DNA of 64,000 nucleotides from Pseudomonadota bacterium (GTDB lineage Bacteria > Myxococcota_A > UBA9042 > GCA-2863065): contig SXOX01000331.1 in the NCBI GenBank assembly GCA_005776585.1, positions 1-64,000 of the forward strand, in the 5' to 3' direction. A program made the position numbers and the translations under genes. How positions within the stretch are numbered: position 1 is the stretch's first letter; each line of letters begins with the position of its first letter. The notes under the pieces are model-generated. The model made no database searches. It was not told where the DNA came from and saw only the letters and a program-made list of their open reading frames with translations. Shown here one piece after another: positions 44,912 through 59,883 of the stretch.

Positions 44912-45139
44912 GTGGAAGTGCCCATGGCCGAACCTACCGAGACCCAGACCATCCGCGAAGAGGCCGCGCTGCCATGGATGGGGACCAAGATGCTCGGCGC
45001 GACGGATCAGTCAGGCGAGCTACCGGCGTTCAAGGTCGGCGGCCGATGGCGGTCCCGGCGTGGCGAGCTTGGCGTTCGGATTGCGGTGTTGATCGGGTAC
45101 ACGAATGGTCGATCCGAAGCCGAACGAGGTGGCAGATGA
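44912..45139 (+). CDS. Small excisionase/MerR-type HTH-like protein coupled to sigma54 activator
   Basis: SGELPAFKVGGRWRSRRGEL resembles excisionase-family GELPAFKVGxxWRFRRxEL; SD GAGGTGAT before GTG 44912; stop overlaps downstream ATG (ATGA). Confidence 0.6.
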   Translation: MEVPMAEPTETQTIREEAALPWMGTKMLGATDQSGELPAFKVGGRWRSRRGELGVRIAVLIGYTNGRSEAERGGR

Positions 45140-46827
45140 GCGCGGCGCCGGTCCTCCTCACCTGGGTCGCCGTGAACAACGACCCGTACGAACGCGACGG
45201 CCAGTCAGGCACGGCGCGGCTCGTCGACGGCGCACCGATCCCAGGTCCGACGTTGACGCTCCTGTGCGACGACGAGTCGCCGTACGCCGGACGGGTCAAG
45301 GACGTCGTGCTCCTGCACCGTGCGCCAGCAGGCGGCGTGAACGAGCGCGAAGAGCAAGCGGTGGAGGAACTCAGCGAGGCGCTCCGAGAGCGCTCGATCA
45401 GGGTCAACCGTGTCCCATGGGACGGCGACGACCCGACGGACCACCGTGCGGTGTTCGAGTTCCTGCGCGACAAGCTCCCCGACTTCCGTCGGCGTTTCCC
45501 GGGTCGTGAGCTGGTGCTTCACATCAGTCCGGGGACTCCGTCGATGCACACGGTCTGGGTGCTGATGGCCGAGACGGGGTTCATCGAGCAGCCATTCACC
45601 GTAGTCAAGTCGTACAGGCGCGCTGAACGGCGCGGTCGCCCTGCGGTCGTTCCCGTCGAGCTCGGAATCGAGACGTTCTACAAGGTCTACAAGGCCTCCA
45701 GCCCGCGCCAGGTCGCTTCTGAGGAACAGCGCGTCGTATGGGATCCAGCGCGCTTCCAGACGGACGCCATGCGAAGGGTCTATGCGGAGGCGCGCCGCTA
45801 CGCTCAGCTCAATGTTCCGGTGCTCATCCGCGGCGAGCGGGGCACAGGGAAGACGACGCTTGCGGGCTGGATTCGGTCGAACAGCCCGTTCAAGCGCGAA
45901 GAGCAGGACGCCAAGTGGCCGAGCGTCGCCTGTGGCCAGTACAGCCCAGAGACCATGCGGGCCGAGCTGTTCGGGTACAAGCAGGGCGCTTTCACGGGCG
46001 CGACGGCTGACCGAAAAGGCCTGCTGGCTGCGGCCCACCGGGACACCCTATTCCTCGACGAAGTCGGTGATGTCAGCCGGGACCTGCAGCGGCTGCTCAT
46101 CAAGGCGATCGAGGAGAAGAGGTACTTCGCCCTCGGTGACGACAAGCCCAGCGAGAGCGACTTCCGACTGCTCACAGCGACCAACATCGACGAGCCCGAA
46201 CTGCAACTTCGGCTCGACCCGGACTTTCGCGACCGGATCAGCCTTCTGACGCTTGAGCTCCCTCCCCTTCGTGATGTCGGCGGCGAGCTTCCGTGGCTGT
46301 GGGAGGTGGTGTACGGAGAGGCCACGCTCCGAGCAGGTGTGACGAGGCGACGTGCCATGCTCGGAGCTGCGCACCACGGCCGGGTCGTGACGCAGCTCCA
46401 GCGTCACCCGCTACCCGGGAATCTCCGCGACCTATTCCGCGTGGCCTACCGCGTCCTCGCCGCGAGAAACGACGTCGACGCTCCGCTGGCCCCTGCAGAA
46501 GCCGTCGAGTACGGACTGGAGGCGCTGCGAGATCCACGTTCCGGTGAGACCCGTGCAGCGTCGATGTCGCGGGCGCTAGCGCGCGCGTTCTCAAGCGGGC
46601 ACCCCATCGACGACCTGCTTCAATCGGACGGGCGGATCGCGACGGCCGAGGTCGTTGCCGACTTACGCGCCTTCATCGCAGCAGAGCTGCGCCGCATCGC
46701 CGCCGCCCGCGGCGTACCGGTAGACGAACTGTGCGACGTGTCAGAGCGGTCGATCCGCGAGTGGACAAAAAGCCGGCAGAATCCATCCTTCGCCCGGAAG
46801 TCCTCTTCCGAATTAGAGGGGAAATAG
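45136..46827 (+). CDS. Sigma54-dependent activator with RtcR/CARF-like N-terminal sensor domain
   Basis: N-terminal Rossmann-like region with LVLHISPGTPSMHTVWVLMAETGFI; AAA with GERGTGKTTLA, FGYKQGAFTGA, LFLDEVGDVSRDLQRLLIKAIEE, GNLRDLFRVAYRV; C-terminal HTH-like region. Confidence 0.88.
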   Translation: MSAAPVLLTWVAVNNDPYERDGQSGTARLVDGAPIPGPTLTLLCDDESPYAGRVKDVVLLHRAPAGGVNEREEQAVEELSEALRERSIRVNRVPWDGDDPTDHRAVFEFLRDKLPDFRRRFPGRELVLHISPGTPSMHTVWVLMAETGFIEQPFTVVKSYRRAERRGRPAVVPVELGIETFYKVYKASSPRQVASEEQRVVWDPARFQTDAMRRVYAEARRYAQLNVPVLIRGERGTGKTTLAGWIRSNSPFKREEQDAKWPSVACGQYSPETMRAELFGYKQGAFTGATADRKGLLAAAHRDTLFLDEVGDVSRDLQRLLIKAIEEKRYFALGDDKPSESDFRLLTATNIDEPELQLRLDPDFRDRISLLTLELPPLRDVGGELPWLWEVVYGEATLRAGVTRRRAMLGAAHHGRVVTQLQRHPLPGNLRDLFRVAYRVLAARNDVDAPLAPAEAVEYGLEALRDPRSGETRAASMSRALARAFSSGHPIDDLLQSDGRIATAEVVADLRAFIAAELRRIAAARGVPVDELCDVSERSIREWTKSRQNPSFARKSSSELEGK

Positions 46828-57662: not shown

Positions 57663-59883
57663 GGCTCGATCCATGTACCGTGATCGGCTCACAGGGCGCC
57701 GAGTCTCGACTCCTCCGCTCACCGGCACGCTGGTCGGTCGCTGGGTTCTAGACGCCAATACCGGCGAGGTGTTCATGAACTCCGCCGCTGCGGCGGCGGG
57801 CGAGTTCCTCGTCCCTGAGAGATCCGGGCACTGGCACGTTCTCACCGGCGAGGGCGAGCGACAGAGCGGGACGGTCGCCCGCGCGCACGCTCCCGAGGAC
57901 CTGGAGGCCGAGAGCGTGCGCACGATCGGCGGCAGGCTCGACGAGCTGACCGAGGCCGGCGCCACATGGCTCGAGTGGATCGACGTCGTGCCGTTGGTGC
58001 CAGGGATCTCGGAGCAGGTGGATCTGCTGTCTCTCGAGCGCCTCATTCAAGACCAACGCAACTTCGGGGCACTCAAGACGATCTGCTGGAAACCTCGCGC
58101 CCATCTCCACGTCGAGATCGAGCGCGCGCCCGTCTCCAAGGCGCGCCGCGTGCCAGCCGCCGCTGCTTCCTACCTCGCGGCCCACACCGAGGACTGGGAC
58201 CGCCCGCTGCTGCGCGGCATCCTGCCAAAGCGGATTCTCGCGGAGGTACGGCACGATCAGGTCGACATCTACGAGAACCGCGTAGCCGCGCGACTCCTCG
58301 ACAACCTCGGCGCATGCCTGAACCGACGGATTCAACTGCTGCGGCGCCTGTTGAAGGTGTTCCAGGAGAAGGAGGACTACTCCTCGTCCATCGGTGGCAC
58401 CTATCAGCGGGAGCGCCGGATGAGCCAGCTGTGGGGGGAGTCGATTGACGCGAACGAGGGCCGCAGGAAGGCAGAGGTCGCGCTCAAGGAACTCGAGGCG
58501 CTGAAGTATAGGCTGATGGGCCTGCTCGGTTCTCCGCTCTACGAGGAGGTGCCGCGGCGGGCCCACATCGCGACCACGCTGAAGACCACCAACGTCCTGG
58601 CCAACGACCAGCACTACCGGCGCGTGGCCGAGCTCTGGCGTGAGTGGGCGCGCACTGGAGCGGGGCGCACGCAGAGTCCAGCCGAGGTCCACGCCGAGGC
58701 TCAGCGCTTGTCCCGGGGTCTTGACGCCTTCGCAATGCTCCTGGCGGTGCGCGCGCTCGACACCCTGGGCTATGAGCCGTCCGATGGTGCGCTCGCTGAG
58801 TCGATCGCGCGGGGCACGGCGCTACGTGTCCAGGGGCACGGTCTCGAACTCACCCTGAGCTGGCACTCCGACGGCACGATCGGCGTGGGCGTCGGCGAGC
58901 GTGAGCTCGCGATCGTAGCGCTCACTGCGAACCTCTCGGCGGGCGGCGACGACCGAGTACGAGAGAGCCTGCGCCGGATTCGAACGGCGCTTGACGAGCG
59001 AGACAACCGCGACCTGCTGGTGCTCTTCCTCGCTTCGGACGAGGGGCAAGCGTCGACGGAGGTGGAGCTCCTCGCTTCTCTGCACACGGTGGGGAACGAT
59101 CCGCGGCACGCGCTCGCGGGTGTCGGCTGCCTCCCTGTCTCGCCCTGGGAGCTCGGGAGCGCCGAGCGCGTCGCCAGGGCACTTCGGTGGTTCCTGTCGA
59201 GCGCCCGCTTCCTCGACTATCCCCTCAGGGTCGTCGTCCCCGAAGGGGCGCGCGACCTCATCGACCTGCGAGAACACGCGAGGTGGATCGCCAGCGTGGA
59301 CGGCGGGGCCACCCTCGAGCTTCGAACCCCTCCCCATGACTACGAGTGGGGGGCGCTGGACGTCGAGTCGATCGCAAGGACCGCCGAGGCCAACCTGCAG
59401 GTTGCCATCGCGGATCATCAGCGGCTCACCGACGAACTACGCGACGCCGTGCGGCGGGGGAAGACTGGCTCGCTCGTCCGCCAGAAGCACGACGCGCACG
59501 AGGAGGTACTGCGATGCGAGCGGATCGCGAAGGCATCGAACGACCTCGTAGAGCAACTCCGCGGCGCCCATGCGAGGGCTATCGCGCTGCTCGAATGTCC
59601 GACCTGCGGACGGACCGCCGATCCTACCCGCGACTTCCAACCGCGGGACCGCGGCAGCTTCCGCTGCGAGTGCAGCGGCTGCGGCACGACCTGGGGGACG
59701 CGGCTCTGCGGCGACGGCCATCGCTATGCAACCATGCTGCCGAGCGGAGACTTCGTCAACGCGGCCCAGCAGGGCCCCGGCTGGGAGGATCGGGTCTACG
59801 GATGCGACATCCTCGCCCTGCCCGCGCGAAGGTCCGATGGGCAGTGGGGTTTCGTATGCCCTGAATGCGGCCGAGTCGGCTGA
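57652..59883 (+). CDS. DUF2357/McrC-like partner protein with C-terminal zinc ribbons
   Basis: LPKRILAEVRHDQVDIYENRVAARLLDNL (DUF2357-like ENR motif); C-terminal CPTCGRTADPT...CECSGCGTTWG and FVCPECG; start ATG 57652 overlaps McrB-like gene by 11 bp (or ATG 57673). Confidence 0.72.
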   Translation: MTSEARSMYRDRLTGRRVSTPPLTGTLVGRWVLDANTGEVFMNSAAAAAGEFLVPERSGHWHVLTGEGERQSGTVARAHAPEDLEAESVRTIGGRLDELTEAGATWLEWIDVVPLVPGISEQVDLLSLERLIQDQRNFGALKTICWKPRAHLHVEIERAPVSKARRVPAAAASYLAAHTEDWDRPLLRGILPKRILAEVRHDQVDIYENRVAARLLDNLGACLNRRIQLLRRLLKVFQEKEDYSSSIGGTYQRERRMSQLWGESIDANEGRRKAEVALKELEALKYRLMGLLGSPLYEEVPRRAHIATTLKTTNVLANDQHYRRVAELWREWARTGAGRTQSPAEVHAEAQRLSRGLDAFAMLLAVRALDTLGYEPSDGALAESIARGTALRVQGHGLELTLSWHSDGTIGVGVGERELAIVALTANLSAGGDDRVRESLRRIRTALDERDNRDLLVLFLASDEGQASTEVELLASLHTVGNDPRHALAGVGCLPVSPWELGSAERVARALRWFLSSARFLDYPLRVVVPEGARDLIDLREHARWIASVDGGATLELRTPPHDYEWGALDVESIARTAEANLQVAIADHQRLTDELRDAVRRGKTGSLVRQKHDAHEEVLRCERIAKASNDLVEQLRGAHARAIALLECPTCGRTADPTRDFQPRDRGSFRCECSGCGTTWGTRLCGDGHRYATMLPSGDFVNAAQQGPGWEDRVYGCDILALPARRSDGQWGFVCPECGRVG

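What the first reader, a model, noticed from the sequence alone, without database searches (positions are those of the whole stretch)
44912..59883. CoCoNuT-like McrBC-derived defence island with a TerY-P signalling module and a UPF1-like helicase
Seen directly: nine plus-strand ORFs in one orientation, mostly overlapping by 4-23 bp, encode an RtcR/CARF-like sigma54 activator, DUF4258, vWA, PP2C, Ser/Thr kinase + zinc ribbon, SF1 helicase, an unknown protein, a coiled-coil McrB-like AAA protein and a DUF2357/McrC-like protein. Established knowledge: coiled-coil McrB plus DUF2357-McrC homologues define CoCoNuT systems, predicted to target RNA, and vWA/PP2C/kinase triads are the TerY-P module. 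Inference: this is a complete phospho-regulated, probably RNA-targeting antiphage system, of a composition that may be a distinct variant.
Basis: partly seen in the sequence, partly recalled or inferred. Interest (0 to 1): 0.93.

Follow-up and report, generated by a model that had tools for sequence, protein, structure and literature searches.

The report
RtcR-controlled Type II CoCoNuT defence operon
A nine-gene bacterial operon, almost certainly an antivirus system of a kind described in 2024 but never tested in the laboratory, carries a damage-sensor-controlled switch whose DNA sites we could locate, and its presumed RNA-cutting enzyme has lost a key catalytic residue.

Summary
The same genes in the same order occur in many genomes from several phyla. 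This is the published Type II CoCoNuT with RtcR, BrnT-like and TerY-P (Bell et al. 2024, PMC11090510), so the composition is not new.

Three things are added here. (1) A sigma54 -24/-12 element lies upstream of the first target gene in 22 of 22 non-redundant RtcR-bearing loci and 1 of 9 without RtcR. In 14 of 14 loci with the same RtcR subfamily a GGAA-N6-TTCC dyad precedes it at a nearly fixed distance. The composite occurs once in the 7 Mb host genome. It supports the published, untested idea that RtcR drives the operon. (2) In this clade CnuE keeps the HEPN-motif histidine but has lost the catalytic arginine, and CnuC has no PD-(D/E)xK motif, so neither recognised nuclease looks canonical. 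(3) In most RtcR-bearing loci the vWA protein has a conserved N-terminal MGWAKY peptide.

Defence, RNA targeting and the effector remain inferred.

The parts
45136..46827 (+). RtcR-like bacterial enhancer-binding protein (CARF-AAA+-HTH), intact GAFTGA and Walker A
   Evidence: PADLOC RtcR_PspF1 1.7e-151, Sigma54_activat 8.7e-38, GAFTGA at 284 and GERGTGKT at 233, start from RBS and homologues
46796..46809 (.). proximal upstream-activating dyad GGAA-N6-TTCC (GGAAGTCCTCTTCC), inside the 3' end of rtcR; a degenerate second copy GGCAGAATCCATCC at 46775-46788
   Evidence: Same spacing in 14 of 14 non-redundant loci with this RtcR subfamily; exact dyad by chance about 0.1-0.3% per 200 bp; single genome-wide composite match
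46922..46937 (+). sigma54-type -24/-12 promoter element TGGCACACTCCTCGCT
   Evidence: 22 of 22 RtcR+ loci, 1 of 9 RtcR- loci; sigma54 gene in host genome
46997..47329 (+). DUF4258 / BrnT-like (RelE-superfamily) small protein
   Evidence: PF14076 2.6e-4; conserved in 20 other non-redundant loci with invariant H16, R20, R24, R39, E55, R87 in the numbering (add 3 for the 110-aa protein)
47352..48146 (+). TerY-like vWA protein with conserved N-terminal MGWAKYQEDIVSR peptide and linker; MIDAS DVSGS
   Evidence: VWA_2 3.3e-10, TerY 9.1e-6, N-terminal peptide
48159..48896 (+). PP2C phosphatase (TerY-P)
   Evidence: PP2C_2 1.9e-30; metal-binding D motifs
48893..50293 (+). Ser/Thr kinase with C-terminal zinc ribbon (CPGC...CTWC)
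   Evidence: Pkinase 5.2e-10; AVK, DPSPAN and two CxxC
50290..53622 (+). CnuH: UPF1-like SF1 helicase, all core motifs intact
   Evidence: AAA_11/AAA_12, IGHMBP2 family 1.8e-37, motifs, Mokosh MkoA 2.7e-90
53600..55216 (+). CnuE: wHTH plus C-terminal HEPN-like domain; H491 retained, catalytic Arg absent (ADAGGGAGH)
   Evidence: wHTH PF24409 in 51 of 63 homologues, MarR-type wHTH fold matches, motif and tree
55203..57662 (+). CnuB: long coiled coil + McrB-type GTPase with NxD motif (NHDE)
   Evidence: AAA_5 1.7e-6, NxD in 37 of 37, heptad periodicity
57652..59883 (+). CnuC: DUF2357 McrC homologue, C-terminal zinc ribbons, no conserved PD-(D/E)xK residues
   Evidence: DUF2357 3.9e-7, conserved columns of 37 homologues, Cys motifs

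Best explanation
This is a Type II CoCoNuT (coiled-coil McrBC-derived) defence operon under dedicated RtcR/sigma54 control. Shown from sequence: the gene set, its conserved order, intact ATPase/GTPase/kinase motifs, the NxD McrB motif, and a sigma54 promoter with an upstream dyad dedicated to this operon. [quoted passage not shown] RtcR then assembles on the GGAA-N6-TTCC dyads and opens the sigma54 promoter at 46922, turning on the BrnT-like protein, the TerY-P phospho-switch and CnuHEBC. The kinase/phosphatase/vWA module arms CnuB (GTPase) and CnuH (helicase), which act on RNA or stalled translation complexes. Because the CnuE HEPN-like domain lacks the catalytic arginine and CnuC lacks a nuclease motif, the cutting step in this clade is carried out either by a non-canonical HEPN chemistry using H491, by the BrnT-like protein, or by an RNase-like part of CnuH, leading to RNA restriction or dormancy.
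For: Gene identities match the published Type II plan (PMC11090510). Collinearity in Deferrisomatales, Polyangiaceae, Archangium, Accumulibacter and other betaproteobacteria, on a Polaromonas plasmid, and in a reduced form in cyanobacteria and Deinococcus. NxD in 37 of 37 CnuB. Sigma54 element in 22 of 22 RtcR+ against 1 of 9 RtcR- loci. UAS dyad in 14 of 14 loci with this RtcR subfamily and 0 of 7 with a divergent RtcR. In L020 the dyad stays with the promoter although RtcR lies elsewhere; in five loci it sits 10 bp after the rtcR stop. Composite unique in G000. Host has sigma54. The two named cyanobacterial loci (L024, L083) have neither RtcR nor such an element.
Against: No experiment. The HEPN fold of this CnuE was not confirmed by fold search: best full-length hit Csm6, E 0.096; domain model no significant hit. 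RtcB and RtcA are absent from this 87%-complete genome, whereas E. coli RtcR needs RtcAB for activation (PMC9650030), so the trigger may differ. The RtcR subfamily link to the dyad is comparative, with phylogenetically related loci.
Confidence: 0.78

Rival explanations
1. A phospho-regulated RNA quality-control or stress-response operon (tmRNA/ribosome rescue, RNA damage) that is not primarily antiviral; RtcR senses endogenous RNA damage and the helicase/McrBC machine clears damaged RNPs.
For: RtcR in E. coli answers RNA damage (PMC7790460, PMC9650030). Neither recognised nuclease looks canonical in this clade. No experimental phage test found.
Against: Sporadic distribution (6 of 57 genomes, the host's own included, have any CnuE homologue and none of the four other same-family genomes does), occurrence on plasmids and homology to Mokosh, which PADLOC lists as an antiphage system (MkoA 2.7e-90, MkoB in 34 of 63 CnuE) fit mobile defence better than housekeeping.
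Confidence: 0.15
2. The system in this clade is armed by the BrnT-like protein: the HEPN has become a non-catalytic RNA-binding domain and the DUF4258/BrnT-like RNase took over as effector.
For: Apparent single loss of the HEPN Arg in a 45-row clade with the His kept. BrnT-like gene first in the RtcR-driven transcript, with invariant H/R/E residues.
Against: Polaromonas keeps RxxxxH and also has the BrnT-like gene. L037 and L044 lack both RtcR and BrnT yet lack the Arg, and L047 and L053 have RtcR without BrnT. So the two traits are not tightly linked.
Confidence: 0.2
3. Type III-A CoCoNuT rather than Type II.
For: TerY-P and RtcR also occur with III-A (PMC11090510); the paper notes myxococcal III-A systems.
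Against: CnuC has zinc ribbons and no Hsp70-like match, CnuB has no HTH match after the GTPase, CnuE has one HEPN-like motif.
Confidence: 0.04

Closest known systems
Type II CoCoNuT with RtcR, BrnT-like and TerY-P (Bell et al. 2024, PMC11090510)
   Same: Every gene, the order, NxD GTPase, coiled coil, UPF1-like CnuH, wHTH-CnuE, McrC homologue without nuclease motif but with zinc ribbon, RtcR and BrnT-like at the 5' end
   Different: In this clade the CnuE RxxxxH arginine is lost (the paper: conserved in most cases). The sigma54 promoter, the UAS dyads and the vWA N-terminal peptide were not found in the parts of the paper read or searched. No extra restriction genes between RtcR and the CoCoNuT here
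Mokosh type I (MkoA/MkoB)
   Same: Kinase plus SF1 helicase plus wHTH-type partner: CnuH matches MkoA (2.7e-90) and CnuE homologues match MkoB (34 of 63, best 8e-7)
   Different: Kinase and helicase are separate genes here, with added PP2C, vWA, McrBC pair and RtcR
E. coli RtcR-rtcBA RNA repair regulon
   Same: CARF-AAA+-HTH activator, sigma54 promoter with upstream activating sequence
   Different: Target operon is a CoCoNuT; RtcB and RtcA absent from the host genome; NCBI RtcR equivalog model scores far below cut-off (181 against 650 bits)
Type III-A CoCoNuT
   Same: CnuH, TerY-P, RtcR association
   Different: No Hsp70-like CnuCD match, no second HEPN-type motif, no C-terminal HTH match on CnuB

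Membership tests
CoCoNuT (any type) | McrB GTPase with NxD signature | tested here: met
   NHDE at 649; NxD in 37 of 37 homologues
CoCoNuT (any type) | long coiled coil fused to the GTPase | tested here: met
   Residues 91-330: heptad periodicity above at least 499 of 500 shuffles, 81-85% D/E/K/R/A/Q/L
CoCoNuT (any type) | McrC homologue with DUF2357 encoded next to it | tested here: met
   DUF2357 3.9e-7, 11-bp overlap
Type II CoCoNuT | UPF1-like CnuH helicase and wHTH CnuE upstream | tested here: met
Type II CoCoNuT | SmpB-like and RNase-toxin-like domains N-terminal in CnuH | not tested
Type II CoCoNuT | CnuC with inactivated PD-(D/E)xK and zinc ribbon | tested here: met
   No invariant nuclease motif among 37 homologues; conserved C649/652, C672/674/677, C736/739. 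The inactive fold itself was not modelled
Type II CoCoNuT | one HEPN with RxxxxH (conserved in most cases) | tested here: not met
   H491 kept in 116 of 117 homologues, Arg position G/A/V/C in the window's clade; RxxxxH present in outgroups. The paper allows exceptions, so this is not an exclusion
Type II CoCoNuT | HEPN fold of the CnuE C-terminus | tested here: inconclusive
   Confident model (pLDDT 90) but no significant PDB match
Type II CoCoNuT | position in the published GTPase tree | not tested
   Reference sequences not held; type assigned from architecture
Type III-A CoCoNuT | Hsp70-like NBD/SBD fused to CnuC | tested here: not met
   Only DUF2357 found in CnuC; zinc ribbons present
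TerY-P triad | vWA, PP2C, STK fused to zinc ribbon, adjacent | tested here: met
RtcR-type sigma54 activator | CARF + AAA+ with GAFTGA + HTH | tested here: met
   PADLOC RtcR_PspF1 over residues 58-600 of the long ORF; GAFTGA
Mokosh type I | kinase-helicase fusion (MkoA) | tested here: not met
   Kinase and helicase are separate ORFs

The most novel reading that the evidence does not exclude
A large CoCoNuT clade has abandoned canonical HEPN catalysis: with the HEPN arginine lost once and the McrC nuclease dead, the system works either by a new His-based chemistry or without cutting RNA itself, and is switched on as a unit by a dedicated RtcR-sigma54 promoter that, at least in this host, needs no RtcAB.
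Probability: 0.35. Interest if true: 0.75.

Novelty: new member of a known kind. Interest (0 to 1): 0.5.

Why it matters
CoCoNuTs are widespread but no experimental test was found. The located promoter and UAS turn the guess that RtcR drives them into a one-plasmid reporter experiment, and they give a DNA signature for finding such operons. The loss of the HEPN arginine in a whole clade warns that RNA cleavage by CnuE cannot be assumed and points to which residues and genes to mutate.

Tried and rejected
Rfam scan of 40-64 kb: nothing. Solved-structure sequence search with the HEPN domain and with the BrnT-like protein: nothing useful. Foldseek on the HEPN domain alone: no significant match; full-length CnuE: only weak Csm6 and MarR-type matches. 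Idea that the BrnT-like gene replaced HEPN activity: weakened by Polaromonas, L037, L044, L047 and L053. Idea that the MGWAKY peptide is a BrnT antitoxin: weakened because it occurs without BrnT in L080, L047 and L053. RtcB absence as a general trait: rejected, 10 of 12 other carriers have RtcB. Empty-site test: the left flank (adenosine deaminase and kinase-TPR genes) is conserved in same-family genomes, which lack the CoCoNuT, but the right border could not be placed. Search of 387 genomes of the Accumulibacter class for Polaromonas-like CnuE gave three carriers, of which one was strong.
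Full report
Observation. The nine ORFs are real and lie on the + strand. Corrected starts are RtcR 45136, BrnT-like 46997, vWA 47352 and STK 48893, each preceded by a plausible ribosome-binding site. Gaps and overlaps in order are +169, +22, +12, -4, -4, -23, -14 and -11 bp. Pfam, PADLOC and NCBIfam identify every product except the C-terminus of CnuE. 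Core motifs are intact: RtcR GERGTGKT and GAFTGA; vWA DVSGS; PP2C aspartates; kinase AVK/DPSPAN plus a two-CxxC zinc ribbon; helicase GPPGTGKT, DEA, QYRMHP, TVDAFQG and VAMSR; CnuB GISGTGKT, LDEMN and NHDE.

Identity. The order RtcR, BrnT-like, vWA, PP2C, STK-ZnR, CnuH, CnuE, CnuB, CnuC is the Type II CoCoNuT plan with its frequent associates in Bell et al. 2024 (PMC11090510). The McrB homologue has the NxD motif in 37 of 37 homologues, the diagnostic feature of the CoCoNuT branch, and a long coiled coil. CnuC has DUF2357 and zinc ribbons, no invariant PD-(D/E)xK residues and no Hsp70 match, which fits Type II and not Type III-A. I could not repeat the published GTPase tree, so the subtype rests on architecture.

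Co-occurrence. Scans for CnuE relatives gave 17 loci in species genomes and 50 in metagenomes. Among the genome loci with enough flank, nine keep all nine genes in this order, two (near-copies of each other) swap RtcR and the BrnT-like gene, one has RtcR inverted, one Myxococcales MAG (L021) has no detectable PP2C, and the cyanobacterium lacks RtcR and BrnT. Plasmids of Polaromonas and Rhodoferax carry RtcR versions; Deinococcus and Pseudanabaena plasmids carry RtcR-less versions. In the window's own relatives the system is rare: 6 of 57 genomes, the host's own included, have any CnuE match, and none of the four other same-family genomes does. Their adenosine deaminase is conserved, and kinase-TPR relatives sit beside it in three of the four, which fits horizontal acquisition.

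A dedicated sigma54 switch. In the 169-bp gap between rtcR and the BrnT-like gene lies TGGCACACTCCTCGCT at 46922-46937. The same kind of element (TGGCAC-N5-TCGCW and close variants) sits about 59-94 bp before the BrnT-like gene, or further upstream of vWA where BrnT is absent. It was found in 21 of 22 non-redundant RtcR-bearing loci within 250 bp, and the 22nd (L047) has TGGCATGTTCATTGC just outside that range; among nine loci without RtcR one (L072) scores (Fisher 1e-6, not corrected for shared ancestry). The weights of the promoter matrix are from my own knowledge of sigma54 promoters. The host encodes sigma54. Upstream lies a dyad, GGAA-N6-TTCC, starting 124-128 bp before the -24 element (99 bp in L020), with a second, often weaker copy 21-22 bp further up in many loci. 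It is present, with at most one mismatch, in 14 of 14 non-redundant loci whose RtcR is close to the window's and in 0 of 7 with a divergent RtcR. The exact dyad is expected in 0.1-0.3% of 200-bp pieces. It is a DNA element and not a by-product of coding: in the window it lies inside the 3' end of rtcR, in five loci it lies 10 bp after the rtcR stop, and in L020 it stays with the promoter although rtcR has moved downstream. Dyad plus promoter occurs once in the 7.0 Mb host genome, at 46796-46936. The paper proposed RtcR control by analogy; its text mentions promoters only in passing. E. coli RtcR acts through a UAS and sigma54 and needs RtcAB (PMC9650030). This host has no detectable RtcB or RtcA (genome 87% complete), although 10 of 12 other carriers have RtcB, so the trigger here cannot simply be assumed.

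The effector. CnuE has a wHTH (PF24409 in 51 of 63 homologues; MarR-type wHTH matches) and a C-terminal helical domain. Distant relatives, including cyanobacterial, Polaromonas and Rhodoferax CnuE, keep R[NDG]xxxH or Rx5H there. In the window's clade the histidine is kept (116 of 117) but the arginine position is Gly, Ala, Val, Cys or another residue. On a tree built without those columns the loss needs only two changes over 65 rows, one of them at the base of a 45-row clade; branch support in that region is moderate. W444, R447, H463 and H491 stay conserved, so the domain is under selection and not decaying. With CnuC also lacking a nuclease motif, neither recognised nuclease looks canonical. 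Candidates are a His-based variant chemistry, the BrnT-like protein (invariant H16, R20, R24, R39, E55 and R87 in numbering) or the RNase-like part of CnuH described in the paper, which I did not test. Fold search did not confirm HEPN for this domain, so 'HEPN' rests on the paper and on the aligned RxxxxH of relatives.

Mechanism. Shown: gene set, conservation, intact motor, kinase and switch motifs, dedicated promoter. Inferred: RtcR senses infection-linked RNA ends or another ligand, induces the operon, TerY-P toggles the complex by phosphorylation, and CnuB/CnuH engage RNA or translation complexes. Defence is supported by mobility, sporadic distribution and homology to Mokosh (MkoA 2.7e-90; MkoB in 34 of 63 CnuE), but no test of a CoCoNuT was found in the library searched.

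Verdict. A new member of a published kind, with new regulatory anatomy and a clade-wide active-site loss that deserve testing.

Noticed in passing
window 47352-47390 (vWA N-terminus): Conserved peptide MG(W/F)A(K/S)(Y/F)xED..SR followed by a variable linker and MSKLKEF, always in frame with vWA; in most RtcR-bearing loci, absent from RtcR-less loci and from L017, L018, L020, L021, L025 and L069. The Rhodoferax plasmid annotation starts vWA after it. Function unknown; perhaps a docking tag.
   Followed up: partly
L107 (G000:C142), 3997-10876: A second TerY-P-like triad (vWA, PP2C, kinase) in the same genome, preceded by a MotA/ExbB-type proton channel gene and two unknown genes.
   Followed up: partly
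L021, 2759-4818: A Myxococcales copy of the operon has vWA directly followed by the kinase, without a detectable PP2C gene.
   Followed up: no
phage record MT835511.1, 39950-41107: A phage contig from human faeces encodes a 36% identical CnuB-like GTPase.
   Followed up: no
window 35096-42795: Two adjacent minus-strand proteins of about 1,300 aa with kinase, AAA_16 and TPR domains next to an adenosine deaminase; relatives of the kinases lie beside the adenosine deaminase in same-family genomes.
   Followed up: partly
window 50290-55216: CnuH and CnuE are homologous to Mokosh MkoA and MkoB; the CoCoNuT paper text does not mention Mokosh.
   Followed up: partly
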